From assembly GCA_024224155.1 (NCBI GenBank), contig JAAENP010000263.1, positions 1-51,058 on the forward strand: a stretch of 51,058 bases of DNA. Direction: 5' to 3'. The translations under genes were made by a program, and so were the position numbers. The stretch is from a bacterium (GTDB lineage: Bacteria; Acidobacteriota; Thermoanaerobaculia; Multivoradales; JAHEKO01). Under the pieces are notes generated by a model that did no database searches, was not told the DNA's origin, and saw nothing but the letters and a program-made list of their open reading frames with translations. This document shows, piece after piece, positions 1 to 15,520 of this stretch (its first letter is position 1; each line of letters opens with the position of its first letter).

Positions 1-523
1 CCTCCTCGACGATCTCGAGCGGCCGCGGTGACGGCACCACACGTCTCCAGCCTCGGTTCGCGTCTTCCCTCATGATCCAGCCTTCGTTCGCCTGGTGCTC
101 CCGGGCCGACTCGTTGGGGTAGAAGGGACCAATCGGCTTGGATGGGTTCTGAAACCCGGGGTCATTCCGGTCGACGACCGCCTGCGTCACCACGGCTGCG
201 ACCGTCTTGTCGATGCCGTGGCGCTTCAGTTCGTTATCCAGGGTCTGCGCGATCTGGTAGCCGATGGCGCCCTGGGTGTCGGCGCCGCAGGTGTCGAGGG
301 GCACTTCGTGGATCGCTTCCCTGGCCATCTCGGAGCGCAACAGGATGAACCCTACCTGGGGCCCGTTGCCGTGGGTGATGATGACCCGGTAGCCCTTTTC
401 GACGATGCCGGCGATGTGTCTGCTGGTCTCGCCGCAAGCTCGGTACTGATCGAAGACCGTCATGTGCTGCGAGTCCCTGATCAGGGAGTTGCCGCCAATG
501 GCGATGACCACGAGTTCTCGCAT
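1..523 (-). CDS. Carbamate kinase, first copy (3' end outside window)
   Basis: The reverse strand reads MRELVVIAIGGNSLIRDSQ and continues as a carbamate kinase. The visible 174 codons contain the nucleotide-site GGNSL at residues 10-14, the HGNGPQVG loop near residues 57-64, the DTQGAIGYQ segment and GWRRVVPSP. The family transfers phosphate from carbamoyl phosphate to ADP, giving ATP, CO2 and ammonia in the cytoplasm. The ATG at 523 is preceded by a GAAAGG-like ribosome site. The C-terminal 130 or so residues, including most of the nucleotide-binding lobe, lie before base 1. It is divergent from the carbamoyltransferase at 766 and is a paralogue of the kinase at 8559, with similar motifs but clearly different sequence. 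Family assignment is secure; why there are two copies is not known. Confidence 0.93.
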   Translation of the reverse strand, partial: MRELVVIAIGGNSLIRDSQHMTVFDQYRACGETSRHIAGIVEKGYRVIITHGNGPQVGFILLRSEMAREAIHEVPLDTCGADTQGAIGYQIAQTLDNELKRHGIDKTVAAVVTQAVVDRNDPGFQNPSKPIGPFYPNESAREHQANEGWIMREDANRGWRRVVPSPRPLEIVEE

Positions 524-765
524 TCGATACCTTTCGCCTTGATCGCACCACCGAGCCGGGACTCGGCCCTCGGCGGTCGCGAAGAAGGAAGCAGGATCAT
601 ACAGAAGGAATCTGGGTCGTAGCCAGGCCCCCGGACCGAGTCCCGCCGCCCGCAGCGGAGCCGGACCGTCGATGGGGGAGCGGACCCGCCCGAAAAGGGG
701 GTGCGGCGGTTGCTCGTATGAGACTAGGATCTGCTCAGGATTATTCTTCGAAGAAGGAGACCACG
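524..765. promoter_or_regulatory. Divergent intergenic control region
   Basis: This gap separates the leftward carbamate kinase from the rightward carbamoyltransferase, so promoters for both must lie here. On the plus strand a TAGGAT hexamer at 725-730 could be a -10 element, followed by the ribosome site AAGAAGGAG at 751-759. On the minus strand TATGAT, at about 597-602, is a -10 candidate. No convincing -35 box was found for either. A short CCGAG/CTCGG inverted repeat lies near 552-567. No small gene is supported. Confidence 0.3.
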
Positions 766-1719
766 ATGCGCAGTTTCAATGGCCGGGACATTCTCTCGCT
801 CAAGGGTTTCGAGCGCCAAGATTTCTTCCGTATCTTCGAGGTCGCCCAAGAGTTGGAGCCTATTGCTCGCAACCGGCGCAATGTCGACCTCCTGAAACAC
901 AAGACTCTCGTCACCGCCTTCTACCAGCCATCGACGCGGACTCGTTTGGCGCATGAAGCCGCCATGATCCGACTCGGCGGACAGGTGACCGGCTTCGCGG
1001 ACGACAAGATGACCCGCGCAGGCGATTTCTACCAGGAGTCGATCAAAGACACGGTCAAGATGCTCGAGTTCTATGGCGACGTCATCGTCATGCGGCACTA
1101 CCAACAGGGAGCGCCGCAGGAGGCCGCGAAATGGGCTTCGATCCCGGTCATCAACGGTGGTGATGGATGGGGCGAGCACCCGACCCAGATTCTGACCGAT
1201 CTCTACACGGTGCTACGAGAGAAGGGCCGCATCGACGGACTCCGCTGGCTGGCGGTCGGCGACATGCGCATGCGCACCATGCATTCCCTCGCCTACGGCC
1301 TGAGCCAGTTCGACTGCCCCATCACCTTCGTGTGCCCCCACGAGTTGGCGTTTACTCCGGAGTTCACGCACGAGTTGGAGGGATACAACCTCAACTTCAC
1401 CGAAGCCGATCACGTCGACCAGGGCATCGCCGAGGCGGACGTCATTCTGGTCGAGCCGGTCGTTCAGCCGGACTACACCAAATCGCGTGACGAACGCGAC
1501 GGTGACGTGGGGCTGACTCCGGAGAACTTCAAGATCACCCGTGAACTGCTGGCAACCAAGGGCAAGTCCGACGCCATTCTGTTGCACTCGCTGCCGCGCA
1601 TGGACGAGATTCCCTCCGACGTCGATATCACGCACTGGTCGAGGTATTGGCAGGAGGCCTTCTACGGCGTGGTCATGCGCATGGCGCTTCTGGCCCTCGT
1701 CCTCGGCGCCAAAGAGTAG
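766..1719 (+). CDS. Aspartate/ornithine carbamoyltransferase-family protein, probably not PyrB
   Basis: A 317-residue cytoplasmic transcarbamylase. The carbamoyl-phosphate site is intact: STRTR at 56-60, MRH at 109-111, HPTQ at 138-141 and the Arg-Thr at 170-171. The overall fold matches aspartate carbamoyltransferase in length and motif order. Two substrate features differ from E. coli PyrB. The loop that should carry Lys84 (GKKGET) reads as AGDFYQES here, and the Arg229-x-Gln231 segment reads as VVQ at 232-234, losing the arginine that holds the aspartate carboxylate. The HPLPR motif is HSLPR. I infer a carbamoyl acceptor or donor other than aspartate, probably a ureido compound, which fits the neighbouring carbamate kinase and YgeW. 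The ATG at 766 follows AAGAAGGAG; an upstream in-frame start at 718 lacks a ribosome site. True PyrB remains possible but less likely. Confidence 0.8.
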   Translation: MRSFNGRDILSLKGFERQDFFRIFEVAQELEPIARNRRNVDLLKHKTLVTAFYQPSTRTRLAHEAAMIRLGGQVTGFADDKMTRAGDFYQESIKDTVKMLEFYGDVIVMRHYQQGAPQEAAKWASIPVINGGDGWGEHPTQILTDLYTVLREKGRIDGLRWLAVGDMRMRTMHSLAYGLSQFDCPITFVCPHELAFTPEFTHELEGYNLNFTEADHVDQGIAEADVILVEPVVQPDYTKSRDERDGDVGLTPENFKITRELLATKGKSDAILLHSLPRMDEIPSDVDITHWSRYWQEAFYGVVMRMALLALVLGAKE

Positions 1720-1724
1720 CCCTC

Positions 1725-1776
1725 GGGGACACCTTTCCTTCGTGTCGCCTCCCGACTGGAGGCGTCCGGTGTCGCC
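1725..1776. terminator. Hairpin between convergent genes
   Basis: GCCTCC (1747-1752) pairs with GGAGGC (1758-1763) around a five-base loop. An outer pair, GGGGACACC (1725-1733) with GGTGTCGCC (1768-1776), matches at all but one position. It lies exactly between the stop codons of the two convergent carbamoyltransferase genes, so it may end transcription from both sides. There is no strong T-tract, so intrinsic termination is uncertain. Confidence 0.45.
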
Positions 1777-2969
1777 TAGCCGCGGCGCCGCGGTAGCTCG
1801 CGGTTGAGCAGCTTGTACAGCACCCTGTCGGGGTGCTCGAAACGATTGAGCAGGATCATTGCGGCCATGACGTACGGTTTGTGCTCGGCCTCGTAGTAGG
1901 TGGCGGTGCGGTAGCGGTCGAAGACACTGGCGGCGACTTCACCTTCCTCGCAGCTCACGCCCGTGATATCCGCGGGAAGACAATGCATGTAGAGAGCTTT
2001 GCCGTCGCGGGTCTTCGCCATCATGTCCTCGGTGCACTCCCAGTCCTTGTGCTTGGCGTTCATCTCCAGGCATTCGCCTTCGAGCGTTTCGAGCTTCTGG
2101 CTCTGGCCGGCGCGCAGGTACTCGGTTCGCTGCTGCATGACCTCGTACGGCGCCCAGCTCTTGGGATAGACGATGTCGGCGTCGGCGAACGCTTCCTCTA
2201 TGCTGTGGACGATCTCGAACGAGCCCCCCGACTCGCTGGCCTGCCGCCTGGCGATTGGGGCTATTTCCGGCATCAGGCCATAGCCCTCGGGGTGAGCCAG
2301 GCTGACGTTCATGCCGAAGCGCGTGAGCAGGCCGACAATCCCCTGCGGCACCGACAGCGGCTTGCCGTACGAGGGGGAATAGGCCCAGCTCATGGCGATT
2401 TTCTTTCCTCGGAGGGCCTTCAAGGATCCAAAGGTCTTTCTCAAATGCATCAGATCGGCCATGGACTGAGTCGGATGGTCGCGATCGCACTGCAGGTTGA
2501 TGATCGAGGGTTTCTGCGGCAGCACGCCTTCCTCGAAGCCCTGTTTGACCGCCTCGGATACCTCGACCATGTACTCGTGGCCTTCGCCGATGAACATGTC
2601 GTCGCGAACTCCTATGGCCTCGGTGAGGAAGGAGATCATGTTGGCGGTTTCGCGTACCGTCTCGCCATGCGCCACCTGCGTCTTGGTCTCATCGAAGTCC
2701 ATGAGCGACAAGCCAAGCAGAGTAGCGGCGCTGGCAAAGGAAAAACGCGTGCGAGTCGATTTGTCTCTGAAGATCGAAACCGCGAGGCCACCGCGGAAGA
2801 CCCGAGCGTCGATGCCGGCGCGGTAGAATTGCTCGAAGATTTCCGCGGTCAGCAGCACCGCTCTCAGGTCAGCTTCAGACTGTTCCCAGCTAAGCAGGAA
2901 GTCGTGGCTGCTGAGATTGGTGCGTAGCATCTTGAGCTCTTCAATGAGCGATCGCATGGGCTCCGGCAT
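1776..2969 (-). CDS. ygeW: YgeW-type knotted carbamoyltransferase
   Basis: A 397-residue protein that follows E. coli YgeW (about 396 residues) from end to end. The carbamoyl-phosphate loop STRTR is at 71-75, followed by FSFASA and the characteristic HGETVRETANMISF at 101-114. HPTQSMADL starts at 165, AYSPSYGKPLSVPQG spans 196-210, and the C-terminal part has MHCLPADITGVSC. These segments are diagnostic of the knotted YgeW group rather than ornithine or aspartate transcarbamylase. The substrate is not firmly established; in purine-degradation clusters the enzyme is thought to work on a ureido derivative of 2,3-diaminopropionate, releasing carbamoyl phosphate for carbamate kinase. The ATG follows GGGAGAAAG. 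The PLP enzyme lies 56 bases upstream on the same strand, so the two are probably cotranscribed. Confidence 0.93.
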   Translation of the reverse strand: MPEPMRSLIEELKMLRTNLSSHDFLLSWEQSEADLRAVLLTAEIFEQFYRAGIDARVFRGGLAVSIFRDKSTRTRFSFASAATLLGLSLMDFDETKTQVAHGETVRETANMISFLTEAIGVRDDMFIGEGHEYMVEVSEAVKQGFEEGVLPQKPSIINLQCDRDHPTQSMADLMHLRKTFGSLKALRGKKIAMSWAYSPSYGKPLSVPQGIVGLLTRFGMNVSLAHPEGYGLMPEIAPIARRQASESGGSFEIVHSIEEAFADADIVYPKSWAPYEVMQQRTEYLRAGQSQKLETLEGECLEMNAKHKDWECTEDMMAKTRDGKALYMHCLPADITGVSCEEGEVAASVFDRYRTATYYEAEHKPYVMAAMILLNRFEHPDRVLYKLLNRELPRRRG

Positions 2970-3025
2970 TCGTCTTTCTCCCTCGGTGTTGTGTAGTGTC
3001 GTGTGGAGTTGTCAGTGGGGGGCGG

Positions 3026-4510
3026 CTAGAGGGCCTTCGTGAGACCTGTGGCGTCGTTGAATCGTCCGATCAGCCGGTCCCACTCGTCCACCTGCTCCTG
3101 TGCAAAGGTCTCTTTCCAGAAATCATCATCCCAGAGCCGGTTGAGCTCCTCCGACGTGCGCCCCTGCTGCTCCACCCAGGTGAAGTATTTGAAGTTGTGC
3201 AGGCTCTTCTGGTCGAAGTAGGTCAACTCCCGCATGTGGTCGGTTGTCGTGCCGTCTAGGTAGCGCGCACCTGCAGCCAGCGCGTCCTCTGAGGAGAAAC
3301 TTCCATAGCACTCTCGCATCTCCTCGAGGCGCGAGGCGTAGAGCTGCATGCCATCGGTCAGCGGGCAGAAGAGCACGTCGCGCGAGTCCATGTCGTAATA
3401 CTTGGCGGTCTTGATGCTGGCGACCAGGTTGCACGCGCTGGAGATGCCCAACAGCTGCAGCTGGTCGATCAAGGTCTGATCCACACCGCGCCGGACCAGC
3501 TCGTTCTGTCCCGCCTCTTCGTTGAACAACCGCAGGAGCTGCATGGTCTGCTCGTCGTCCACGGCACACACCATGTCGGTGTTGCGGACGTTGTGGATCC
3601 AGGGCACGTGCTTGTCGCCGATGCCCTCAATGCGGTGTTCGCCGAAGCCGAACTGATAGAGCGTCGGGCACTGGAGCGCCTCGACTGCGGTCACGCGAAG
3701 AGAGGGATACTGACTGCGTAGGTAGTCACCGGCGGCAATGGTTCCGGCCGAGCCGGTGGCGCTGCTGTAGGCGGCGAGACGGCTGTTTTCGGTCTTGTAG
3801 TGCCGTTCGTAGATCTGCTGGATGATGGACCCGGTCATCTGGTAGTGCCAGATGGCGTTGCCGAACTCCTCGAACTGGTTGAAGATGACGATCTTGTCGC
3901 CGCGCTCGTGGCGCAGCTCCCAGCACTTGTCGTAGATCTCCTTGACGTTGGACTCGGTTCCGGGCGTGGCGATGACCTCGTCGGTACCGATCTCCCGAAG
4001 CCACTCGAATCGCTCGCGGCTCATGCCCTCCGGCAGGATGGCGATCGCGGGGCAGTCGAGGAGCGCGCAGTCATAGGCGCCGCCGCGGCAGTAGTTTCCA
4101 GTCGACGGCCAAACCGCCTTCTGGGTCGTGGGGTCGAAGTTGCCGGAGACCAGCCGTGGCACCAGGCAGCCGTAGGCCGCGCCGACCTTGTGGGCGCCGG
4201 TCGGAAACCACTCACCAACGATGCCGACGATGGTGGCGTCGACTCCGGTCAGCTCGGGAGGGAACTCGATCCAGTTGCCCTCACCGAAGCCACTGCCCTT
4301 CTCTTTGGCCTCGTTGTGCCAGGTGATGCGAAACAGATTGAGCGGGTTGACGTCCCAGAGGCCGACCTCCGCGAGGCCCGTCACGATCTTGGGCGGGATT
4401 CGAGAGGGATCCTTCTGCTCGGCGAAGGTGGGAAGAATAATGTTGCGTTCACGAGCGCGGGCAATTGACTTGGCGAGCACTTCTTCGTTGATGGAATCGA
4501 TGATCTTCAT
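3026..4510 (-). CDS. Fold-type-II PLP enzyme of unassigned substrate
   Basis: A 494-residue cytoplasmic protein of the cysteine synthase/threonine synthase/diaminopropionate lyase superfamily. The probable Schiff-base lysine is K108 in PTGAHKVGAAYG. The substrate loop STGNYCRGG is at 136-144, equivalent to the S/T-GN loop of the fold, and SATGSAGTIAAG resembles the glycine-rich phosphate-binding loop. It is longer than cysteine synthase (about 310) and YgeX (about 400), with extra sequence at both ends. It is not a close relative of the YgeX at 9537. It stands immediately upstream of ygeW on the same strand, so a beta-elimination or replacement on a diamino acid or its ureide is a reasonable inference, but no reaction can be assigned. 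The ATG at 4510 follows GGGGGAA; a TTG 18 bases upstream is a weaker alternative. Confidence 0.85.
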   Translation of the reverse strand: MKIIDSINEEVLAKSIARARERNIILPTFAEQKDPSRIPPKIVTGLAEVGLWDVNPLNLFRITWHNEAKEKGSGFGEGNWIEFPPELTGVDATIVGIVGEWFPTGAHKVGAAYGCLVPRLVSGNFDPTTQKAVWPSTGNYCRGGAYDCALLDCPAIAILPEGMSRERFEWLREIGTDEVIATPGTESNVKEIYDKCWELRHERGDKIVIFNQFEEFGNAIWHYQMTGSIIQQIYERHYKTENSRLAAYSSATGSAGTIAAGDYLRSQYPSLRVTAVEALQCPTLYQFGFGEHRIEGIGDKHVPWIHNVRNTDMVCAVDDEQTMQLLRLFNEEAGQNELVRRGVDQTLIDQLQLLGISSACNLVASIKTAKYYDMDSRDVLFCPLTDGMQLYASRLEEMRECYGSFSSEDALAAGARYLDGTTTDHMRELTYFDQKSLHNFKYFTWVEQQGRTSEELNRLWDDDFWKETFAQEQVDEWDRLIGRFNDATGLTKAL

Positions 4511-4856
4511 AGGCGTTCCCCCGGTCAACAGATTGATGACGAACCCATCCGGCAGCCCACCACCCCTCGCCCCCCTCCCAAGATGCCGTCCGTTCGCAGT
4601 CCTTGTGGCCCCGAAGCCGGATCCGGATTGGGTCTCGCTACGGGCCTCCGACAGGCAGTCGTCGGGCCCGCCGTGGAAAGACTAAGCTTAAGGGGCGACC
4701 AAGGTCAATCGGCGCTCGGAGGCCGGCCGTGAATGCCGACTCTGATACGGTCGGAGCGGATAGCCACATCATCCGAGCCGCTTCAAATTTCAGTTCAATT
4801 CGGTGCTTGTTTGGAGTGTCGTCCGATCGGGCGAGTGGCGTGCTGTGGGAGAAGAC
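4511..4856. other. 346-base divergent intergenic region
   Basis: This spacer lies between the leftward PLP enzyme gene and the rightward sulfotransferase-like gene. Apart from the minus-strand promoter candidate at 4679-4708 and the ribosome site GGGAGAAG just before 4857, I see no small gene, tRNA or repeat. The last 80 bases are relatively AT-rich (around CTTCAAATTTCAGTTCAATT), which suits a promoter for the rightward gene, but no clear -35/-10 pair could be chosen. Confidence 0.5.
4679..4708 (-). promoter_or_regulatory. Candidate sigma-70-type promoter for the PLP-ygeW pair
   Basis: On the minus strand TTGACC (4703-4708) is separated by 18 bases from TAGTCT (4679-4684). The arrangement matches the strong rpsA promoter at 39299 (TTGACA, 18, TATACT) and the candidate at 17203 (TTGACC, 18, TAGACT). 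It would leave a leader of about 160 bases before the ATG at 4510. The -10 box is poor, so support is moderate to low. Confidence 0.35.
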
Positions 4857-5684
4857 ATGGACAACAGCCTTCCGAAAGGGCTCGAACGCATACGGGATCA
4901 TCATCCCCGGATCTACACGATCGTTTCGCCACCGCGGTGCAGCTCGACGGCATTCTCGCGAGTGTTTTGGGAGCAGCCATCGGTGCGGTACTACTGCCAC
5001 GAGCCGTTCGAGGTCACCTACTACATGGGACAGGGCTTGCAGGAGGTTGTCGAAAAGCTCGACGCGCCCATCGATCTTGTTGAGCTCAAACACGTGCGTG
5101 GTGACACCGATGGCCGGGCGTTGGTGATCAAAGAAATGCCGTATCAGGTCGGCGAGAGGTTCCCTCTCTTGGCCGGATTGGCGACGAAACCGATCATCTT
5201 CTTGATGCGCGACCCGCGCCTGAACATCTCGTCGAGGATCAGGAAGAAGCGGGAGGTCGGTGACAGTCCGTTCTTCCCCTTGGTGGAAACGGGGTGGGAA
5301 CTGATCGCTTCGCAGATCACCCACTGTCGAAATGAGGGGATACCCCATCTGATCGTCGACTCCTCGGACTTTCGCAACAGCCCCAGCGAGGTCTTCCCGC
5401 AGGTCCTGGAGCGCTTCGATCTCGACTATGTCCCCGAGACGCTGCGCTGGAAGGAGTGCGCTGAGGTGGAGCTCGACAATCTCGAGGGCAAGCACCGACA
5501 TCTCTACGGAGAGGTCCTCGAGAGCCGGGGCATCAAGCCGGACCTGGAGTTGATCCCGCCGCTCGACTGGTTCCCCGAGGAAAGGGGAATGCGAGACCAC
5601 GTTGCCTGCTGTCTGGAGGTCTACAAAGGCTTGCGCGCCGCGGAAGAGCGGGTTCGGGGGAGTTCCGGGGGACACAATACGTAA
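4857..5684 (+). CDS. Sulfotransferase-like P-loop protein
   Basis: A 275-residue soluble protein. Near the N-terminus IVSPPRCSSTAFSRVF (residues 22-37) resembles the PAPS-binding P-loop of sulfotransferases, where a Pro-Arg-Ser/Cys-Gly/Ser-Ser/Thr stretch holds the 5'-phosphosulfate. RDPRLNISSR in the middle resembles the 3'-phosphate-binding RDPR...S motif. No signal peptide or membrane span is visible. The acceptor cannot be predicted. The ATG at 4857 follows GGGAGAAG. The last codons (Gly-His-Asn-Thr-stop) lie inside the left arm of the palindrome at 5668-5770, so the element supplies the C-terminus. Its place in a ureide island is unexplained; it could be a later insertion or an unrelated neighbour. 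Confidence 0.7.
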   Translation: MDNSLPKGLERIRDHHPRIYTIVSPPRCSSTAFSRVFWEQPSVRYYCHEPFEVTYYMGQGLQEVVEKLDAPIDLVELKHVRGDTDGRALVIKEMPYQVGERFPLLAGLATKPIIFLMRDPRLNISSRIRKKREVGDSPFFPLVETGWELIASQITHCRNEGIPHLIVDSSDFRNSPSEVFPQVLERFDLDYVPETLRWKECAEVELDNLEGKHRHLYGEVLESRGIKPDLELIPPLDWFPEERGMRDHVACCLEVYKGLRAAEERVRGSSGGHNT

Positions 5685-5753
5685 CGTCGTCGTAACACGG
5701 CTGACTGACTGTGCGGCCTCGAACGTCTCGGGCCTGACCGTGGCACGACGATG

Positions 5754-5770
<17 letters not shown>
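5668..5770. repeat. Long imperfect palindrome (REP- or MITE-like unit) between convergent genes
   Basis: GGGGACACAATACGTAAC at 5668-5685 is repeated exactly in inverted orientation at 5753-5770. Pairing continues inward with few mismatches through TCGTCGT and ACGG, giving arms of about 30 bases around a central segment of roughly 40 bases. Both convergent genes stop within it, and each ends in Gly-His-Asn-Thr-stop encoded by the repeat arm. REP-like elements with such ends are often moved by IS200-type (Y1) transposases, but none is encoded in this window. The structure could also act as a bidirectional terminator. Confidence 0.8.
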
Positions 5771-8390
<2,620 letters not shown>

Positions 8391-8520
8391 GCTCCGATTT
8401 CTCCGAGCTCAGCGTTGATTCGCGGCGTCCGGATGTTGGCTGAGGGTACCGCAGCGGTTCAGGCCGGGCAAGCAGACGGGGTCGGGCGGAGACTCTCGGC
8501 CGCCGAAGGATAGACTCGGC

Positions 8521-8541
8521 CTCGCTGCTCTCGTCAGCGAG
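8521..8541. promoter_or_regulatory. Perfect 7-bp inverted repeat upstream of carbamate kinase
   Basis: CTCGCTG and CAGCGAG form a perfect stem around a seven-base loop, 17 bases before the TTG start at 8559. A TAGACT hexamer at 8511-8516, just upstream, resembles a -10 element, but no -35 box precedes it. The repeat may be an operator for a regulator of the kinase-ygeX operon or a leader hairpin. No regulator gene is present in the window. Confidence 0.35.
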
Positions 8542-8558
8542 CCGGATCGGATGGAAGA

Positions 8559-9521
8559 TTGAGTCCCTCAGCTACTGCCTCGAAACTGGCCGTTGTCGCA
8601 GTCGGCGGCAACTCGCTTATCGCCGATGCTGCGCACGCGACGATCTTCGACCAGTCGGCGACCGCGACCGCGACCGCTCACCAGATCGCCGCGATGATCG
8701 AGCAGGGCTGGAATCTGGTCATCACTCACGGCAACGGACCCCAGGTGGGCTTCATCTTACGGCGCTCGGAGATCGGAATCAGTGAGGTGCCCCCGATTCC
8801 GATGGACTATGCGACCTCCAATACCCAGGGCTCGATCGGGTACATGTTCCAGCGGGCGTTGAGAAACGAGTTCCGGCGCCGTGGCATCGGGCGCGAGGTG
8901 GTCTCGTTGATCACGCAGACGCTGGTGGACCGGAATGACTCGGCCTTCAGCGAGCCGACGAAGCCGATCGGTCCTCATCTCGACGAGGCGACCGCTCGTC
9001 AGCGGGCCGCCGAACAGGGCTGGGTGATCCGAGAGGATTCCGGGCGAGGCTGGCGCCGGGTGGTGCCGTCGCCTCGGTCGGTGGCGATTGTCGAGCTCGA
9101 AGTGATCCGCAGCCTGGCGACGGGGGGTACGGTGGCGATCGCCTGCGGCGGTGGGGGACTGCCGGTCTTCGAAGACGAGACCGGCGAGCTCCGGCGGGTC
9201 GAGGCGGTCATCGACAAGGACGACGCCTCGAGCCTCCTGGCTCGGGAGCTCGGCGCCGAAATGCTGCTGATCACGACCGCGGTGGAGAAGGTGGCAGTCA
9301 ACTTCGGCAAGCCGGATCAGCGATGGCTGAGTCGGCTGACCCTCGCCGAGGCTCGCGAGTACCAGGCGCAGGGGCAGTTCGCCGCGGGAAGCATGGGCCC
9401 GAAGATCGAGGCGATGATCGATTTTGTAGAGCACTGCGGCGGGCGTGGACTGATCACCGACCCGGGGAATCTGACTCGCGCGCTGGCCGGCGAAACCGGC
9501 ACCGAGATCGTCGTGGGCTGA
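8559..9521 (+). CDS. Carbamate kinase, second copy (YqeA/ArcC family)
   Basis: A 320-residue protein of full family length. GGNSL at 16-20 and HGNGPQVG at 57-64 form the phosphate and carbamoyl-phosphate sites. IACGGGGLPV (from about residue 194), DKDDASSLLA, TAVEKVAVNFG and AAGSMGPKIEA follow in family order. It makes ATP from carbamoyl phosphate and ADP in the cytoplasm, the energy-conserving step of ureide breakdown. The start is a TTG with GGAAG five bases upstream; no ATG or GTG lies nearby in frame. The ygeX gene begins 15 bases downstream with a strong AGGAGG, so the two form an operon, as expected if both act in the same pathway. Confidence 0.95.
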   Translation: MSPSATASKLAVVAVGGNSLIADAAHATIFDQSATATATAHQIAAMIEQGWNLVITHGNGPQVGFILRRSEIGISEVPPIPMDYATSNTQGSIGYMFQRALRNEFRRRGIGREVVSLITQTLVDRNDSAFSEPTKPIGPHLDEATARQRAAEQGWVIREDSGRGWRRVVPSPRSVAIVELEVIRSLATGGTVAIACGGGGLPVFEDETGELRRVEAVIDKDDASSLLARELGAEMLLITTAVEKVAVNFGKPDQRWLSRLTLAEAREYQAQGQFAAGSMGPKIEAMIDFVEHCGGRGLITDPGNLTRALAGETGTEIVVG

Positions 9522-9536
9522 ACAGGAGGACGGCCG

Positions 9537-10784
9537 TTGGCGACTGAAGAACCGCTGGACTGGACCGCCAATCCCAACCCCTCGCTGGGCGAGAGAACGG
9601 ACTCTCTGGACACCATCTTGCCGGACGGCGCGCTCGAGGCAGCTCGCGAGTTCCACCGCCAGATCCCCGGCTTCCGGTACAGCCCGCTCAAAGGCCTGAG
9701 TGGTCTGGCCGGGATGCTGGGTTTGGGCGGCCTTTGGGTCAAAGATGAGGCCGAGAGGCTCAGTCTCAGCTCGTTCAAGGTTCTGGGTGGGTCGTTCGCC
9801 ATCTACAAGTTCCTCGCGCGGCGACTGGCACGCGAGACCGGAGACCTCACGTTCGCCGAGCTCACCTCCGCCGAGAGCCGTGAGCGACTGGGGGAGATCA
9901 CCTTCGCCACCGCGACCGACGGCAACCACGGTCGGGGCGTGGCCTGGGCGGCCAGCAAGCTCGGCCAGCGGTCGGTCGTCTACGTTCACAGCAAGACCTC
10001 GCGGGCCCGGATCAAGGCCATCGAGAACCACGGTGCCCGCGTCGAGATCGTCGATGGTACCTACGACGACGCGGTGCGAAAGATCGACCGCGATGCCAAA
10101 CGAAACGGTTGGCAGGTGATCTCGGACACATCTTGGGAAGGCTACGAAGAGATACCGATCTGGATCATGCAGGGCTATACGACCTTGTTCTCGGAAGCAC
10201 AGGAGCAAATGGCGGCGCAGGGCCTGGTCAGACCGAGTCACGTGTTCATTCAGGCCGGCGTCGGCGCTCTCGCAGCTTCCTGCGTTGGCTTCTACCATCG
10301 GGTACTCGGCGGTGACGCTCCGACCTGTGTCGTGGTCGAGCCCAGCCAAGCGGCCTGTCTACTGAAGTCGGCTCGGGTTGGAGACGGTCGGGCTCACCAC
10401 TTCCCGGGGGATTTGGACACGATTATGGCGGGCCTGGCTTGCGGAGACCCGAGCCCGATCGCCTGGGACCTCCTGTGGGATCGCGCGGACGTCTTCGCCG
10501 CGGTGCCCGACTACGTCGCCGCCAAAGGCATGAGGGTCTTCGGCGTTCCCCTGGACGGCGATCCCGCGGTGATATCGGGCGAGTCGGGAGCGGTGACCCT
10601 GGGGGCTCTGATGTTTGCGATGGAGGCGCCGGAGGGCGCTGCGCTCAAGCGACATCTTGGTCTGGGCGCCGACTCGCAGGTTCTCCTGGTCAACTCGGAG
10701 GGGAATACCGATCCGGACTACTTCCGCCGTGTCGTCTGGGAGGGCGTCAACGCGGTGCCCGAGGAACACCGCTACGGGCACTAG
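9537..10784 (+). CDS. ygeX: Diaminopropionate ammonia-lyase
   Basis: A 415-residue fold-type-II PLP enzyme matching E. coli YgeX. The Schiff-base lysine is K81 in SSFKVLGGS. ATDGNHGRGVAW starts at 126, with Asp128 at the position of the E. coli catalytic Asp120, and SDTSWEGYEEIPIWIMQGY holds the equivalent of Asp189. The enzyme splits D- or L-2,3-diaminopropionate into pyruvate and two ammonia molecules. Together with carbamate kinase and a carbamoyltransferase it forms the last part of the ureide route. The start is TTG at 9537, seven bases after a strong AGGAGG. The stop codon overlaps that of the convergent deaminase gene in a shared CTAG. Confidence 0.94.
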   Translation: MATEEPLDWTANPNPSLGERTDSLDTILPDGALEAAREFHRQIPGFRYSPLKGLSGLAGMLGLGGLWVKDEAERLSLSSFKVLGGSFAIYKFLARRLARETGDLTFAELTSAESRERLGEITFATATDGNHGRGVAWAASKLGQRSVVYVHSKTSRARIKAIENHGARVEIVDGTYDDAVRKIDRDAKRNGWQVISDTSWEGYEEIPIWIMQGYTTLFSEAQEQMAAQGLVRPSHVFIQAGVGALAASCVGFYHRVLGGDAPTCVVVEPSQAACLLKSARVGDGRAHHFPGDLDTIMAGLACGDPSPIAWDLLWDRADVFAAVPDYVAAKGMRVFGVPLDGDPAVISGESGAVTLGALMFAMEAPEGAALKRHLGLGADSQVLLVNSEGNTDPDYFRRVVWEGVNAVPEEHRYGH

Positions 10785-11383
10785 GCCAGGGGGATCTCGT
10801 TGTCGCTTTTCGATTCCTGATAGATCAGCGACAGCTCGGAGTAGCGAGCTCGCAGCTGCCGCACATGAGCGCCAAGGTCATCGCGCTCGGTCCCATCGAA
10901 CGCCTCGATCATGGCAACCAGGTCGTTACTCTTCCAGTAGGCGTTCTCGGACGCGTATTCGCCGTTGGCACAGCCAAAGACCTCTTCCAGGATCCGCAGA
11001 TCGTGCGGGATGTCGAAATCGTCGCGGGAATCCTCGTAGCTGAACAAATAGTAGAAGTTGTCGAAGCCGGCCCAGGTGATCGCGGAGAGGCACAGCGAGC
11101 ACGGCTCATGGGTGCTCAGAAACAGGCACTCCCTGGGATTCGGTCGTTCCCCGGAAGGCAACTCGTGAAACCTCCGGATGGCCACGACCTCACCGTGCCA
11201 CAGGGGGCACTGGGTCTCCTCGTTGGTACCCGCAACGACTAGCGCACCGTCGGCTTTGCTCAGAACCGCCGCACCGAAGACTTTGTCGCCTCGTTGCACG
11301 CCTGCCTGGGTGAGTGGGGCGATGTCGTTCTCGATCACTTCGAGAAAACGGGCAATCAAGGGCGCGGGTGAGTCGGTCTGCAC
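10781..11383 (-). CDS. Zinc-dependent CMP/guanine deaminase-like protein
   Basis: A 200-residue protein with the cytidine deaminase-like zinc signature: His-Gly-Glu at 63-65 (zinc ligand and proton-shuttling glutamate) and EPCSLC at 93-98 (two zinc cysteines). The fold covers guanine deaminases, tRNA adenosine deaminases and riboflavin deaminases. An aromatic stretch, FDNFYYLFSYEDSRDDFDIPHD, follows and is unlike TadA or classic guanine deaminase. The position between ygeX and hyuA suggests deamination of a purine or ring-opened intermediate, which is inference only. The GTG start follows AGGAGAA. The gene is convergent with ygeX and divergent from hyuA, so it has its own promoter in the 146-base gap before hyuA. 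Confidence 0.8.
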   Translation of the reverse strand: MQTDSPAPLIARFLEVIENDIAPLTQAGVQRGDKVFGAAVLSKADGALVVAGTNEETQCPLWHGEVVAIRRFHELPSGERPNPRECLFLSTHEPCSLCLSAITWAGFDNFYYLFSYEDSRDDFDIPHDLRILEEVFGCANGEYASENAYWKSNDLVAMIEAFDGTERDDLGAHVRQLRARYSELSLIYQESKSDNEIPLA

Positions 11384-11515
11384 GGCGGTTCTCCTGGTGG
11401 TTCAGCGCTCGGCGCCGGCCGCTCTCCTTTGATGTCTGCTGCGGCGCCAACGAGATTGAATTCTGTCATGACTTGTCCGGCCGGCACCGCCGGCACGACC
11501 AGCGTTTGTGGGGCG

Positions 11516-11521
11516 TAGAAT
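11516..11521 (+). promoter_or_regulatory. Candidate -10 element for a leaderless hyuA transcript
   Basis: TAGAAT ends eight bases before the ATG at 11530, so transcription would start at or next to the start codon. No -35 box is evident. A GAGAAG stretch also lies just before the ATG and could serve as a ribosome site if transcription starts further upstream. Confidence 0.4.
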
Positions 11522-11529
11522 GAGAAGTC

Positions 11530-12900
11530 ATGTCACTGTTGGTCAAGAACGGCACGCTCGTGACGAGCGAGGCCAGCGGCCCGGGCGATGTACGCTGTCG
11601 GGACGGCAAGATCGTCGAGGTGGGGCGTGAGCTCGAGCCGGGGCGGGAAGAGGTTCTCGACGCTTCGGGCCAGTACGTGTTCCCAGGGGCGATCGACCCC
11701 CATGTGCACATGGAGCTCGCGGTGGCGGGAACCGTGTCGTCGGACGACTTCGAAAGCGGCACCGCGGCCGGAATCGCGGGCGGCACGACGACGATCATCG
11801 ACTTCGTTCATCCGGAGCGGGGCGAGGACTTTCTCGGGGCATTGGAATCCCGGCTCGAGGAGGCCGCGAAGTCCGTCGTCGACTACGGGCTCCATATGGC
11901 GGTCACCTGGTGGGGCGATGGCACCGTTGAGCAGATGGCGCGTTGCGTGGCTCGGGGAGTGCCCTCGTTCAAGGTCTATCTGGCCTACAAGGCGACCGTG
12001 GGTCTCGACGACGTAGACGTAATCGAGGTTCTGCAGGCGGTTGCCGATCTCGATGCCCTGATGCTCGTCCACGCCGAGCACGGCGAGATGGTCGAGCACC
12101 TGCGGGAGCGTTTTGCGCGAGAGGGCAAGACCGAGCCCAGGTATCACGCGCTCTCTCGACCGTCGCCGCTCGAGGGCGAAGCGACGGGGCGGGCAGCCTG
12201 CCTTGCCGGAGCGGTCGGAGCCAGGCTGTATGTGGTCCACGTAACCTGCAGGGAATCCGTCGAGGCCATTGCGGATGCCCACCGCCGAGGCTGGTCGGTC
12301 TATGGTGAGACCTGCCCGCAGTATCTGCTCCTCGACGACTCGGTTTACGACAAGCCGGATTTCGAGAGCGCGGCCTTCGTTATCGCGCCTCCGATCCGTC
12401 CCCGCGGCCATCAGGAGGTGCTGTGGTCGGCCCTGCGCGAGGGCACGCTGGAGACCATCGGCACCGACCACTGCCCGTTCAACATGGCCGGACAGAAAGA
12501 GCTCGGACGAAACGACTTTCGCCTGATTCCGGGCGGGGCCGCGGGGATCGAGCACCGGCTGTCGTTGCTGTACACCTATGGCGTAAGGACGGGGCGGATC
12601 GATTTCCGCCGTTTCGTGGATCTGGTTTCGACCCGGCCCGCTCAGCTTTTCGGGCTCTATCCGCGCAAGGGCACGATCGCGGTGGGGGCCGACGCCGATT
12701 TGGTCGTCTGGGACCCCACGGCCACGTCGATCATCTCGGCGCAAAGCCATCACCACCGCTGTGATCGAAGCATCTTCGAGAGCTTCGAGATCACCGGCGC
12801 GGCTTCGAGCGTGGTCGCCGCGGGCCGCCTGCGCTACCGCGACGGAGACCTCCGAGTCCGGCGCGGTGAAGGCCGGTTCCTCGAGCGTCGCTTCGGCTAG
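11530..12900 (+). CDS. hyuA: Dihydropyrimidinase/hydantoinase-family cyclic amidohydrolase
   Basis: A 456-residue amidohydrolase with the full binuclear metal site. HxH is at His58 and His60 (DPHVH), the carboxylated lysine is K148 in SFKVYLAYK, metal histidines are at 181 (HAEHGE) and 237 (VHVT), and the catalytic aspartate is D313 in GTDHCPF. Such enzymes hydrolyse cyclic diamides including dihydropyrimidines and hydantoins. In the E. coli cluster the counterpart is HyuA; here it probably opens a ring derived from a purine, but the natural substrate is not proven. It is monocistronic or the last gene of its strand, ending in a CTAG shared with the convergent methyltransferase-like gene. Confidence 0.9.
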   Translation: MSLLVKNGTLVTSEASGPGDVRCRDGKIVEVGRELEPGREEVLDASGQYVFPGAIDPHVHMELAVAGTVSSDDFESGTAAGIAGGTTTIIDFVHPERGEDFLGALESRLEEAAKSVVDYGLHMAVTWWGDGTVEQMARCVARGVPSFKVYLAYKATVGLDDVDVIEVLQAVADLDALMLVHAEHGEMVEHLRERFAREGKTEPRYHALSRPSPLEGEATGRAACLAGAVGARLYVVHVTCRESVEAIADAHRRGWSVYGETCPQYLLLDDSVYDKPDFESAAFVIAPPIRPRGHQEVLWSALREGTLETIGTDHCPFNMAGQKELGRNDFRLIPGGAAGIEHRLSLLYTYGVRTGRIDFRRFVDLVSTRPAQLFGLYPRKGTIAVGADADLVVWDPTATSIISAQSHHHRCDRSIFESFEITGAASSVVAAGRLRYRDGDLRVRRGEGRFLERRFG

Positions 12901-13574: not shown

Positions 13575-14054
13575 CTAGAGCGCCAAGAGGGCGCCCTCGT
13601 GCGCCAGCAGCTTTTCCTTGATCTCTATTCCTCCGCCGTAGCCGGTCAGCTTGCCGTTGGCGCCGATGACCCGATGGCAGGGAATCACGATCGGAATCGG
13701 ATTGGCGCCGTTGGCGGCTCCCACGGCACGCACGGCCTTCGGTCTCCGGATTCGCTCGGCCAGCTCGCCGTAGGAGATCGTGGTTCCGAATGGGATCCTC
13801 TGGAGCTCGTCCCAGACCCGACGCTGAAACGCCGAGCCGTGGGGAGCGAGAGGGAGATCGAACTCCTCGCGGGTTCCGGCGAAGTAGGCTCGCAGCTGGG
13901 AGACGGTCTCGGAGAAGAAACCAGGGTCCCTTTGCCACTCGGGTCGGATCGGTACAGGGTGCGTGCCGCTCCGGAAGTCGACGAGTCTGAGGCCTTCGGC
14001 GTCACCGGCGAGAAGCAGCTCTCCGAGCGGACTCTTGTAGCTCGTGTATTTCAC
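13575..14054 (-). CDS. ogt: Methylated-DNA--protein-cysteine methyltransferase
   Basis: A 159-residue suicide repair protein that transfers alkyl groups from O6-alkylguanine to its own cysteine. The acceptor is C126 in VIPCHRVIG, preceded by the recognition helix with AVGAANGANPIP. Length and motif order are typical of Ogt. The GTG start overlaps the stop of the ada-alkA gene upstream in a GTGA, so the two are translationally coupled and form an alkylation-repair operon with the methyltransferase-like gene that follows. Confidence 0.95.
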   Translation of the reverse strand: MKYTSYKSPLGELLLAGDAEGLRLVDFRSGTHPVPIRPEWQRDPGFFSETVSQLRAYFAGTREEFDLPLAPHGSAFQRRVWDELQRIPFGTTISYGELAERIRRPKAVRAVGAANGANPIPIVIPCHRVIGANGKLTGYGGGIEIKEKLLAHEGALLAL

Positions 14055-15520
14055 TCGTTCGTTCCTCCGAGCTCAGAAAGGGACCGCCACAGGTGCATTG
14101 CGCCGTAGGCTCGCCAAGGCCGCCAGCTCTCGGCCATGCGACGCATCTCGGCCGGGCGGAGAACGGTGCCGTCGGGTCCGGCGAGCCGTCCGGAGGCCTT
14201 GAGCAGCCCGAGATCGCTCGCGGGGAAAGCGTCGGGCTCCCCCAGGGCCCTCATGGCGATGTACTGGGCTGTCCAGTCCCCGACTCCGGGAAGGCTCAGC
14301 AGAACCTCGGTGGCTTCGCCGGGATCGACGCCGGGTTCGAGGCGGAGCTCGCCGCTCGCGCAAGCGCCGGCGAGTCGACGGATTGCGACGGCCCGGCTCT
14401 TCGGCATTCCGACCCGAGTGAACCTCGCACGCGCCAGCTGCCGCGGCTCGGGGAACACGAAACCCCCTGGGACTCGGCGACCGTACTCTTCGACGAGTCG
14501 GCCCGACAAAGTGGTGGCGCCCTTGACGGTGACCTGCTGGCCCAGGATGGCCCGCGTCGCCAACTCGAAGCCATCCCAGGCGCCCGGTACCCGGAGTCCC
14601 GGCCGATGGCTGACCAACGAGCTCAGCAGCGGGTCGAGCTCCAGGTGCGAACGAATCTCGGCCGGATCAGAATCGAGATCGAAGAGCCGGCGGACTCGCG
14701 CGGCGATCGTCAAGAGGACCTTCGAGCTCGGGAAGTCGACCGCCAGGACGAGCGCGTTGCCGGCTCGGACGGGCCGGACCTCCAGCCGGCCGACTTGGTC
14801 CTCCAAGCGGATGTTGCGCCGGTAGGCGCTTCCGACGATCGTCTCGACTCCCGGAATCGCTCGCGGCGCCAAGAACGCGATCAGCGCGTCCCAATCGAAC
14901 GGCTGCCGAAACGGAAGTCTGAGCTCGATCACGGCCCGGCGGGACGGGTGGAGTCCCCGCCCGGGGCGTCGCCGGAGGTCACTGGGGCTGCGCGCATAGG
15001 TCCGTCGAATCAAGTGGTTGAACCGGCGCACGCTACCGAAGCCCGCGGCGAACGCGACGTCCGCCATCGAGAGATCGGTCTCGTCCAGAAGCTTCTTCGC
15101 AAACAGCAGCCGGCGTGTCTGCGCGACGGCGACCGGAGAGGCCCCGAGATGCTTTTGAAACAGCCGGCTCAGGTGGCGCGTGCCAATGCCGAGTCGTGTC
15201 GCCATGTCCTCGACCCCGCATTCATCCAGGACGCCCGCTTCGATCTGGCGCAGAGCGCGGGCGACCGTGGCCGAAGTGCCGCTCCAGGCCGGTGTACCGG
15301 GAGCGGTCTCGGGTCGGCATCGCAAGCACGGCCGCAAACCAGCGCTCGAAGCGGCTGCCGCCGTGGGAAAAAACCGCACGTTGCGGGCCTTGGGCGGCCG
15401 TGCCGGGCAGATCGGGCGACAGAAGATGCCTGTGGTCAAGACACCTACGAAGAACCGCCCGTCGAAACGCGGGTCACGGGCCAGGCGCGCTCGTTCGCAG
15501 ATTCTGGTGTCGAGATTCAT
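14051..15520 (-). CDS. Ada-type methylphosphotriester acceptor, AraC HTH and AlkA glycosylase fusion
   Basis: A 489-residue three-part protein. Residues 1-75 are the Ada N-terminal zinc domain with C34, C38, C65 and C68 in FCRPICPAR and RPCLRC; the first cysteine would accept methyl from phosphotriesters. Residues 82-185 are an AraC-type helix-turn-helix region (VEDMATRLGIGTRHLSRLF). The remainder is AlkA N-terminal plus helix-hairpin-helix glycosylase, with GVGDWTAQYIAMRALG and the catalytic aspartate in FPASDLGL. It likely both senses alkylation and excises 3-methyladenine, controlling the operon with ogt. The ATG at 15520 follows GGAG by eight bases; a TTG 30 bases upstream is less likely. 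Such Ada-AlkA fusions are known in several phyla. Confidence 0.93.
   Translation of the reverse strand: MNLDTRICERARLARDPRFDGRFFVGVLTTGIFCRPICPARPPKARNVRFFPTAAAASSAGLRPCLRCRPETAPGTPAWSGTSATVARALRQIEAGVLDECGVEDMATRLGIGTRHLSRLFQKHLGASPVAVAQTRRLLFAKKLLDETDLSMADVAFAAGFGSVRRFNHLIRRTYARSPSDLRRRPGRGLHPSRRAVIELRLPFRQPFDWDALIAFLAPRAIPGVETIVGSAYRRNIRLEDQVGRLEVRPVRAGNALVLAVDFPSSKVLLTIAARVRRLFDLDSDPAEIRSHLELDPLLSSLVSHRPGLRVPGAWDGFELATRAILGQQVTVKGATTLSGRLVEEYGRRVPGGFVFPEPRQLARARFTRVGMPKSRAVAIRRLAGACASGELRLEPGVDPGEATEVLLSLPGVGDWTAQYIAMRALGEPDAFPASDLGLLKASGRLAGPDGTVLRPAEMRRMAESWRPWRAYGAMHLWRSLSELGGTNE

What the first reader, a model, noticed from the sequence alone, without database searches (positions are those of the whole stretch)
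1..12900. Ureide/purine island with paralogous pairs of three enzyme classes
The sequence shows two carbamate kinases, two carbamoyltransferases and two fold-type-II PLP enzymes around a purine-hydroxylase-type protein, a deaminase and HyuA. The E. coli yge cluster has one YgeW and one YgeX with one carbamate kinase. The doubling suggests two parallel branches, each releasing carbamoyl phosphate and making ATP, perhaps for two ureido products of one purine. Left-hand genes (CK, PyrB-like, YgeW, PLP) and right-hand genes (CK, YgeX, deaminase, HyuA) look like two sets.
Basis: partly seen in the sequence, partly recalled or inferred. Interest (0 to 1): 0.75.

Follow-up and report, generated by a model that had tools for sequence, protein, structure and literature searches.

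The report
Uric-acid degradation island, two carbamoyltransferases
This looks like a bacterial gene island for breaking down uric acid without oxygen, put together from two sets of genes, and it may save energy twice per molecule because it carries a second enzyme that could strip off urea-like groups as carbamoyl phosphate.

Summary
The window is one end of a MAG contig; its first gene, a carbamate kinase (CK1), runs off it. Contig C124 ends in the other half of a CK and carries YgeY, YgfK, an SsnA-like protein, a threonine-synthase-like PLP enzyme (THRS), guanine deaminase and a second xanthine dehydrogenase. Together they cover the reductive uric-acid pathway published in 2025. The doubling has an explanation: two same-genus genomes show an older island (YgeW-B, M20-B, THRS-B, PLPK-B); here a cassette (YgeY, THRS, CK1, ATCL, YgeW, PLPK) stands in their place, while CK2, YgeX, deaminase and HyuA stay. 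The two carbamoyltransferases are not duplicates: one is YgeW, the other (ATCL) a pseudo-aspartate-carbamoyltransferase with its carbamoyl-phosphate site kept and aspartate-side residues changed. ATCL sits divergently beside a CK in 7 of 7 class genomes that have it and tends, weakly, to occur where the ureidase is missing; it may remove the second ureido group by phosphorolysis, giving two ATP per urate in series, not two parallel branches. PLPK is an unnamed OASS-fold family, in 64 of 148 class genomes, 53 of them without YgeX. Island identity is strong; both enzyme roles are untested.

The parts
2..523 (-). CK1, carbamate kinase, N-terminal 174 aa; cut by the contig end, C-terminal half probably at the end of contig C124
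   Evidence: NF009007 216 bits, arcC 217 bits over the half; C124 end codes the C-terminal 158 aa, 51 of 58 aligned bases identical in the overlap; both halves 74-75% identical to the one CK at that place in G039
524..762 (.). 239-bp intergenic region between divergent CK1 and ATCL; presumed shared control region
   Evidence: divergent CK-ATCL arrangement in 7 of 7 ATCL-bearing genomes of the class; gap computed; control function inferred
763..1719 (+). ATCL, pseudo-aspartate-carbamoyltransferase (318 aa); proposed second ureido-phosphorolysing carbamoyltransferase
   Evidence: TIGR00670 238.8 vs 236.95, just over; K84->Y, RxQ lost, HPLP->HSLP, carbamoyl-phosphate residues and R167 kept in 10 of 10 aligned ATCL rows; genome has separate PyrB and ArgF
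1776..2969 (-). YgeW, knotted carbamoyltransferase (397 aa)
   Evidence: TIGR03316 606.8 vs 500; 60% identical to E. coli YgeW
3026..4510 (-). PLPK, OASS-fold PLP enzyme (494 aa), unnamed family; proposed beta-eliminating enzyme of the lower pathway
   Evidence: PF00291 60.8 bits; no NCBIfam model over cut-off; invariant K108 and N139; AF2 mean pLDDT 85, best Foldseek/VIA hits OASS, beta-cyanoalanine synthase, CBS
4803..5684 (+). ORF of unknown function travelling with the cassette
   Evidence: no NCBIfam or Pfam family at E 0.001; 62% identical orthologue at the same place in G039
5754..8390 (-). XDH-family molybdenum hydroxylase with Fe-S domain (878 aa); proposed urate-to-yanthine reductase
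   Evidence: TIGR03311 922 vs 830; 27% identical to E. coli XdhD
8562..9521 (+). CK2, carbamate kinase of the older island
   Evidence: arcC 360.9 vs 358.25; 83-85% identical to the CK beside XDH and YgeX in G037 and G038
9537..10784 (+). YgeX, diaminopropionate ammonia-lyase
   Evidence: NF006058 504 vs 276, TIGR03528 492 vs 532; 46% identical to E. coli YgeX
10781..11383 (-). CDA-fold deaminase, substrate unknown
   Evidence: PF00383 40 bits; next to YgeX in G038, G040 and G047, about 6 kb from it in G037
11530..12900 (+). HyuA, D-hydantoinase; proposed to open ureidomethyl-hydantoin
   Evidence: TIGR02033 537.8 vs 393; 38% identical to E. coli HyuA

Best explanation
The island encodes one reductive uric-acid degradation pathway, assembled from two gene sets. 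SHOWN by sequence: the gene set is there (XDH, YgfK, SsnA-like, HyuA, YgeW, YgeY, YgeX, CK; YgfK, SsnA-like and YgeY on the neighbouring contig, which also has guanine deaminase and an ordinary xanthine dehydrogenase). It is composite: a cassette carrying YgeY, THRS, CK1, ATCL, YgeW and PLPK stands where same-genus genomes carry YgeW-B and M20-B, and THRS-B and PLPK-B are gone from their slot between the deaminase and HyuA. INFERRED from the published pathway: urate -> yanthine (XDH) -> dihydro form (YgfK) -> ureidomethyl-hydantoin (SsnA) -> 2,3-diureidopropionate (HyuA) -> one ureido group removed by YgeW with phosphate -> the other removed by YgeY (hydrolysis) or, the new proposal, by ATCL with phosphate -> 2,3-diaminopropionate -> pyruvate and ammonia (YgeX, or PLPK/THRS). 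YgeW and ATCL would each release carbamoyl phosphate, which CK1 and CK2 turn into ATP. So the two carbamoyltransferases would work in series on the two ureido groups of one molecule and give up to two ATP per urate, where the E. coli scheme has one phosphorolytic step. PLPK, with THRS, is most likely a beta-eliminating PLP enzyme acting on diaminopropionate or 3-ureidoalanine (albizziin). My confidence: island identity about 0.9; cassette swap about 0.8; ATCL as the second phosphorolytic step about 0.4; PLPK as eliminating lyase about 0.35.
For: Pathway genes over curated cut-offs except SsnA; the pathway itself is published (PMC12507026; PMC12990295). Contig junction: half CKs in matching orientation at both ends, and the same order YGEY-THRS-CK-ATCL-YGEW-PLPK-ORF4803 on one contig of G039. 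Cassette swap: gene order in G038 and G037. ATCL: carbamoyl-phosphate residues kept, K84 and the RxQ motif changed, R167 kept; divergent with CK in 7 of 7 class genomes and convergent with YgeW in 6 of 7; in 5 of 5 Chloroflexi loci with ATCL the order is ATCL-YgeW'-CK on one strand; the genome has its own PyrB and ArgF. M20 ureidase (YgeY or M20-B) present in 3 of 7 ATCL+ and 9 of 11 ATCL- genomes of the family. In Chloroflexi a YgeY-clade gene is present in 1 of 5 ATCL+ genomes and in 7 of the 8 genomes whose cluster stretch was seen to lack ATCL. A related pseudo-ATCase beside a carbamate kinase phosphorolyses allantoate in vitro (PMC4016543). PLPK: with YgeW-type genes in 54 of 64 PLPK genomes, 46 of those 54 without YgeX; OASS/CBS fold; a Bosea plasmid homologue lies near RidA and a TauE/SafE exporter.
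Against: YgeY is present here, so ATCL is not needed to complete the pathway; G039, G045 and Chloroflexi L156 also have both. The ATCL/ureidase association is weak: Fisher 0.14 in the family, 0.032 in Chloroflexi, 0.007 pooled (4 of 12 vs 16 of 19), with no correction for relatedness or MAG gaps; by NCBI's YgeY cut-off instead of the clade the Chloroflexi figures are 3 of 5 vs 8 of 8 (0.13) and the pooled value 0.03. Absence of ATCL in those Chloroflexi genomes rests on the cluster stretch, not on a whole-genome search, and three further genomes were left out because the stretch was cut (G153, G156, G161; counting them as ATCL- gives 9 of 11). In G046 ATCL-CK stands without YgeW beside it. PLPK and THRS persist where YgeX is present (PLPK in 11 of 13 YgeX genomes), so a plain replacement of YgeX is too simple. 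30 of 80 named PLPK loci show none of the pathway genes. The contig ends are not identical (51 of 58). SsnA is well below its curated cut-off and lacks about 55 N-terminal residues of the E. coli protein. The XDH is only 27% identical to XdhD. No separate YgfM was found in the annotated stretch; the only FAD-type XDH subunit seen belongs to the ordinary xanthine dehydrogenase.
Confidence: 0.5

Rival explanations
1. Plain redundancy: the island is the known reductive uric-acid pathway, and ATCL, CK1 and PLPK are leftovers or spare copies from a horizontally imported cassette with no step of their own.
For: All steps of the published pathway are covered without ATCL and PLPK; same-genus G037 and G038 have no ATCL and one CK in the cluster stretch seen; YgeY is present here.
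Against: ATCL is 76-85% identical between genomes of this class and Chloroflexi and stays beside a CK in both; its changed residues are fixed in 10 of 10 aligned rows; PLPK and THRS were replaced by counterparts, not simply lost.
Confidence: 0.25
2. Two parallel branches: each set degrades a different ureido compound, for example the reductive diureidopropionate route and an allantoate/ureidoglycine route.
For: Two syntenic sets with a CK each; a pseudo-ATCase of another subgroup is an allantoate-cleaving (ureidoglycine) carbamoyltransferase (PMC4016543); G045 carries A-type and B-type clusters on one contig; C124 also has an ordinary xanthine dehydrogenase.
Against: Both carbamoyltransferases lie in one set; ATCL lacks the HPLA motif of the ureidoglycine enzyme; I recognised no uricase or allantoate gene among the island genes that I annotated, though I made no search for uricase; the right set has no carbamoyltransferase.
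Confidence: 0.12
3. ATCL is a regulatory or moonlighting ATCase-like protein, or a true aspartate carbamoyltransferase that happens to sit here.
For: Just over the TIGR00670 cut-off, 238.8 against 236.95.
Against: Aspartate-side residues changed in all aligned rows; a true PyrB is elsewhere in the genome (TIGR00670 324.6 bits); catalytic carbamoyl-phosphate residues kept.
Confidence: 0.07

Closest known systems
Reductive uric-acid degradation cluster of E. coli (ygeWXY-hyuA-yqeA-ygfK-ssnA-xdhD; PMC12507026)
   Same: XDH homologue, YgfK, SsnA-like, HyuA, YgeW, YgeY, YgeX and a carbamate kinase are all here.
   Different: Adds a second carbamoyltransferase (ATCL), a second carbamate kinase and two further PLP enzymes (PLPK, THRS); short SsnA; distant XDH; genes on both strands.
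Pseudo-ATCases of Barba et al. 2013 (PMC4016543), subgroups 1-3
   Same: ATCL has STRT, HPTQ and HSLP and reads VQP at the RxQ position, the signature given for subgroup 3; the pairing of a pseudo-ATCase with YgeW, xdhABC and hyuA was noted there for Nocardioides (subgroup 2); subgroup 1 has CK and purine context, and its Rubrobacter member phosphorolyses allantoate.
   Different: Subgroup 3 was reported with a Na+ symporter and an asparaginase and is given no function in the sections I read; ATCL sits in a reductive uric-acid island beside CK; the motif reading depends on a one-residue alignment choice; no direct sequence comparison with the published members was possible here.
O-acetylserine sulfhydrylase / cystathionine beta-synthase / beta-cyanoalanine synthase (fold-type II PLP)
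   Same: PLPK's core, about residues 40-405, superposes at VIA-align Z 27-29.5 in the 50 rows shown (e.g. 3vc3_A: 299 residues aligned, rmsd 3.0 A, 21% identity) and keeps a lysine and an asparagine-loop motif.
   Different: About 90 extra residues at the C-terminus and an N-terminal extension, a highly conserved CPT...HRIEGIGDKH stretch that the model places with low confidence (pLDDT under 50 at 281-299), and far below all cysteine-synthase cut-offs (94 bits against 351).

Membership tests
Reductive uric-acid degradation cluster | XdhD/XdhA-type molybdenum enzyme | tested here: met
   TIGR03311 922 vs 830; but 27% to E. coli XdhD
Reductive uric-acid degradation cluster | Yanthine-reducing YgfK (or UacX) | tested here: met
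   C124: TIGR03315 917.5 vs 835
Reductive uric-acid degradation cluster | SsnA | tested here: inconclusive
   Best families are SsnA models, but 242 vs 455.5, N-terminally short
Reductive uric-acid degradation cluster | HyuA, YgeW, YgeY, YgeX and carbamate kinase | tested here: met
   TIGR02033, TIGR03316, TIGR03526, NF006058, TIGR00746 over cut-off; TIGR03528 for YgeX just below (492 vs 532)
Reductive uric-acid degradation cluster | Conversion of urate to pyruvate through yanthine and diureidopropionate | not testable with these tools
   needs enzymes or cultures
Genuine aspartate carbamoyltransferase (for ATCL) | RxQ and HP[LG]P motifs (PMC4016543 Table 1) and K84 (recalled) | tested here: not met
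   R and Q positions changed, HSLP, K84->Y in 10 of 10 aligned rows; two partial ATCLs, L130 and L154, were not in that alignment
Pseudo-ATCase subgroup 3 (for ATCL) | STRT, HPTQ, HSLP, VxP | tested here: met
   read; VxP is met as VQP with a one-residue alignment choice
Pseudo-ATCase subgroup 3 (for ATCL) | Branch position at the root of ATC II beside published members | tested here: inconclusive
   ATCL groups with E. coli PyrB on a long stem; published members not available here
Ureidoglycine carbamoyltransferase (pseudo-ATCase 1) | HPLA with AIA/AIS/SIA | tested here: not met
   ATCL has HSLP
Diaminopropionate ammonia-lyase (for PLPK) | NF006058/TIGR03528 match | tested here: not met
   no such match for PLPK at E 0.001
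Cysteine synthase (for PLPK) | TIGR01139 over curated cut-off | tested here: not met
   94.4 vs 350.95

The most novel reading that the evidence does not exclude
ATCL is a new carbamoyltransferase activity (2,3-diaminopropionate or 2-/3-ureido-alanine carbamoyltransferase) that lets some anaerobes split off BOTH ureido groups of 2,3-diureidopropionate by phosphorolysis, doubling the ATP from urate and making YgeY dispensable; and PLPK with THRS form a YgeX-independent end of the reductive uric-acid pathway that is spread over many phyla and has not been described.
Probability: 0.35. Interest if true: 0.68.

Novelty: new variant of a known kind. Interest (0 to 1): 0.52.

Why it matters
The order of the two ureido cleavages is named as open in the commentary on the reductive uric-acid pathway (PMC12990295). 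A natural variant with two different carbamoyltransferases, in some genomes with no ureidase found, makes that question testable with two purified enzymes. If both cleavages are phosphorolytic, the carbamoyl-phosphate energy yield of anaerobic urate breakdown doubles. PLPK and THRS would show that YgeX is not a safe marker for the pathway: in this class 53 of 64 genomes with PLPK have no YgeX hit, so surveys that require YgeX would miss many candidate uricolytic bacteria.

Tried and rejected
First idea, dropped: that ATCL simply stands in for a missing YgeY in this genome. C124 carries YgeY, so the idea survives only as a comparative tendency.

Dropped: that ATCL and YgeW, or PLPK and YgeX, arose by duplication in this genome.

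Dropped: that PLPK merely replaces YgeX. 11 of 13 YgeX genomes have both.

Corrected on re-checking: I had counted all 11 Chloroflexi genomes without ATCL in the fetched locus as ATCL-. For three of them (G153, G156, G161) the stretch is cut before the place where ATCL would lie, so I left them out. I had also called the XDH single; C124 has a second, ordinary xanthine dehydrogenase.

Led little further: clustering unlabelled neighbours of PLPK gave mostly families that I could not tie to the pathway, apart from ABC-transporter-like genes (my reading). The plasmid search with ATCL gave only matches of 38% or less in the 15 of 33 rows shown. selD and other selenium genes were not looked for. 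The VIA-align list covers model residues 34-415; the C-terminal 80 residues of PLPK were not searched alone. The papers by Liu et al. cited in the commentary were not read.

Choices that affect counts: YgeY counted by tree clade in Chloroflexi; with NCBI's cut-off the figures are 3 of 5 vs 8 of 8. G043 counted as ATCL-, though its contig ends 145 bases past YgeW, where ATCL would lie. Short or duplicate rows were dropped before the trees (alignments under 230 or 260 residues and identical rows); some window rows remain as cut copies. L130 and L154 begin inside ATCL, so what lies upstream was not seen. YgeW counts at E 1e-50 include relatives below the curated cut-off (15 of 60 are over it). 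THRS counts (E 1e-60) do not include THRS-B.

Full report
WHAT IS IN THE WINDOW. From left: CK1 (2-523, -; cut by the contig end), ATCL (763-1719, +), YgeW (1776-2969, -), the OASS-like PLP enzyme PLPK (3026-4510, -), an ORF without family (4803-5684, +), an XDH-family molybdenum enzyme (5754-8390, -), CK2 (8562-9521, +), YgeX (9537-10784, +), a CDA-fold deaminase (10781-11383, -) and HyuA (11530-12900, +).

THE ISLAND CONTINUES ON ANOTHER CONTIG. The window is contig C263 of a 5.7-Mb, 576-contig genome. Among the seven PF00696 hits in that genome, the only other half kinase is at the right end of contig C124, in matching orientation: C-terminal 158 aa there, N-terminal 174 aa here. The overlapping ends share 51 of 58 bases, so they are not identical, and the join is an inference. 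It is supported by G039 (same family), where YgeY-THRS-CK-ATCL-YgeW-PLPK-ORF4803 lie in that order on one contig, and where both halves of CK1 are 74-75% identical to the one CK. C124 adds, from the junction leftwards, THRS (threonine-synthase-like), YgeY, YgfK, a short SsnA-like protein, an AzgA-like permease (36% to E. coli GhxQ), a cytosine-deaminase-like amidohydrolase (below its cut-offs), and further left both subunits of an ordinary xanthine dehydrogenase (TIGR02963 656.9 vs 467, TIGR02965 1292 vs 849.5) and a guanine deaminase (NF006679 352.7 vs 351).

WHAT IT IS. XDH, YgfK, SsnA, HyuA, YgeW, YgeY, YgeX and carbamate kinase are the parts of the reductive uric-acid pathway (PMC12507026: abstract, outline and found passages; PMC12990295: first part of the text). 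There urate goes through yanthine and 2,3-diureidopropionate; YgeW removes one ureido group with phosphate, YgeY hydrolyses the other, and YgeX cleaves diaminopropionate. The order of the two ureido cleavages is given as unsettled in PMC12990295. The cluster was noted earlier in the selenium context (PMC2276186, passages) and in PMC4016543. The guanine deaminase and ordinary xanthine dehydrogenase on C124 could feed guanine and xanthine into urate, upstream in the same chain; this is inference.

WHY THINGS ARE DOUBLED. Both other same-genus genomes in the class search (G037, G038) carry an older form. In G038, on one contig: CDA-like, SsnA, YgfK, a YgfK-like gene, YgeW-B, M20-B, then XDH, CK2, YgeX, deaminase, THRS-B, PLPK-B, HyuA. 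In G037 the part from the YgfK-like gene to HyuA lies on one contig, with several kb between YgeX and the deaminase. In the window's genome YgeY-THRS-CK1-ATCL-YgeW-PLPK-ORF4803 stand in place of YgeW-B and M20-B, and THRS-B and PLPK-B are gone from between deaminase and HyuA; the whole-genome search found one PLPK in this genome. Each replaced gene has a counterpart in the new cassette; ATCL and CK1 are the additions. Both carbamoyltransferases belong to the cassette.

ATCL. It is on the ATCase side of a 77-row carbamoyltransferase tree, on a long stem of its own; YgeW and its relatives are on the OTCase side. The genome has a separate PyrB (324.6 bits) and ArgF (390 bits). In 10 of 10 aligned ATCL rows the carbamoyl-phosphate residues (STRT, R105, H134, Q137) are kept. 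K84 is Y, the residues aligned with R229 and Q231 are changed, R167 is kept, and HPLP is HSLP. From memory, K84, R229 and Q231 hold aspartate's beta-carboxylate and R167 its alpha-carboxylate; if so, the substrate is an amino acid without a beta-carboxylate, as 2,3-diaminopropionate is. PMC4016543 (abstract, sections 6, 7, 9, 10 and passages) calls such proteins pseudo-ATCases. Its subgroup 3 signature (STRT, HPTQ, HSLP, VxP) fits ATCL if the motif is read as VQP. Its subgroup 1 member from Rubrobacter phosphorolyses allantoate in vitro, and its subgroup 2 member from Nocardioides lies beside ygeW, xdhABC and hyuA. So the idea of a pseudo-ATCase in purine breakdown, and one instance beside YgeW, are already in print.

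ATCL IN OTHER GENOMES. It occurs in 7 of 148 genomes of the class, all in one family (E 1e-40), and in 5 of 80 named PLPK loci, all titled Chloroflexi, Anaerolineae or members of that group. It is divergent with a CK in 7 of 7 class genomes and convergent with YgeW in 6 of 7; in G046 a multicopper-oxidase-like gene takes YgeW's place. In 5 of 5 Chloroflexi loci the order is ATCL-YgeW'-CK on one strand, then THRS and PLPK. In L106 and L152 a GntR-type regulator (my reading of the sequence) precedes ATCL, with no YgeY in the locus. M20 ureidases (YgeY or M20-B) were found in 3 of 7 ATCL+ and 9 of 11 ATCL- genomes of the family; the four ATCL+ genomes without one are 70-91% complete. In 16 Chloroflexi genomes searched for YgeY, a YgeY-clade gene is present in 1 of 5 ATCL+; in 7 of 8 whose cluster stretch was seen without ATCL; three more (two with YgeY) have a cut stretch and are left out. 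ATCL was not sought genome-wide in these. By NCBI's cut-off the Chloroflexi figures are 3 of 5 and 8 of 8. Fisher values: family 0.14, Chloroflexi 0.032, pooled 4 of 12 vs 16 of 19, 0.007; by the cut-off 0.13 and 0.03. None is corrected for relatedness or gaps in MAGs. In G048 and G049 the slot after CK that holds YgeY in G045 has other genes. I read this as a tendency, not proof, that ATCL can do the work of the ureidase, by phosphorolysis.

PLPK AND THRS. PLPK has no NCBIfam model over cut-off. Fifteen and 21 aligned members keep K108 and N139 in lysine and asparagine-loop motifs. The AF2 model (mean pLDDT 85, pTM 0.89; residues 281-299 under 50) has an OASS/CBS-type core: best VIA-align row 3vc3_A, Z 29.5, rmsd 3.0, 299 aligned; O-ureido-L-serine synthase 3x44_B is also listed, Z 27.6, rmsd 2.9, 293 aligned. 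In the 148 class genomes: PLPK in 64 (E 1e-20), YgeX in 13 (over cut-off), YgeW-type in 60 (E 1e-50; 15 over cut-off), THRS in 43 (E 1e-60), YgeY in 41 (over cut-off). PLPK and YgeW-type occur together in 54 genomes, 46 of them without YgeX; 11 of 13 YgeX genomes have PLPK. In the named genome collection at least 589 stretches encode relatives; the best 80, from many phyla, were kept. Of these 80, 34 have two or more pathway genes in the fetched stretch, 27 of those 34 with THRS and none with YgeX; 30 of 80 show no pathway gene, some on short contigs. A gammaproteobacterial locus has YgfK-SsnA-XdhB-XDH-PLPK-YgeY-YgeW-CK-THRS on one strand (L083). Two distant plasmid homologues (44-46%) lie near M20 peptidases and TauE/SafE exporters, one also near RidA, which suggests beta-elimination chemistry. 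I propose that PLPK and THRS act on diaminopropionate or 3-ureidoalanine. Since PLPK is kept beside YgeX, they may act on another isomer or an earlier intermediate. This is inference.

NOVELTY. The pathway is known, and pseudo-ATCases in purine breakdown are known. In the held library (open-licence PMC only) six searches, of which I saw the listings, and term look-ups in PMC12507026 showed no description of a second carbamoyltransferase, PLPK or THRS in the reductive uric-acid pathway. The papers by Liu et al. cited there were not read, nor were the supplements. I therefore rate it a new variant of a known kind.

Noticed in passing
L008:4733-5800 (C124), L180 about 2300-3400 (G038): The SsnA-like protein of this genus starts about 55 residues later than E. 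coli SsnA, at a conserved DTTPGLVCAHHH-type start; the short form is shared by two genomes, so an assembly error is unlikely.
   Followed up: partly
L053, L116, L137: Three clusters carry two adjacent OTC-side carbamoyltransferases of different subfamilies, with PLPK and a CK-like gene in the locus: possibly an independent solution to the same double-ureido problem.
   Followed up: partly
L009:13556-19428 (C124): Guanine deaminase next to both subunits of an ordinary xanthine dehydrogenase, left of the SsnA-YgfK part: the same island seems to oxidise xanthine to urate and then reduce urate.
   Followed up: partly
L228 (Rhizobium sp. NXC24 plasmid), L229 (Bosea vaviloviae plasmid): PLPK homologues outside uric-acid clusters, near M20 peptidases, TauE/SafE exporters and, in Bosea, RidA: perhaps N-acyl or sulfur amino-acid breakdown.
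   Followed up: no
L187 (G046:C160): ATCL-CK pair next to a large multicopper-oxidase-like gene and without YgeW (my reading of the ORF, not a family search).
   Followed up: no
window 4803-5684: ORF with no NCBIfam or Pfam family that travels with the cassette; its sequence reminds me of sulfotransferases (recalled, untested).
   Followed up: no
window 13575-15550: Ada/AlkA fusion next to an O6-methylguanine methyltransferase, unrelated to the island.
   Followed up: no
L107-L154, Anaerolineae loci: Several PLPK loci also hold ABC-transporter-like genes with a lipoprotein (clusters 2, 7, 8, 9), possibly a purine or nucleoside importer (my reading of sequence starts).
   Followed up: no
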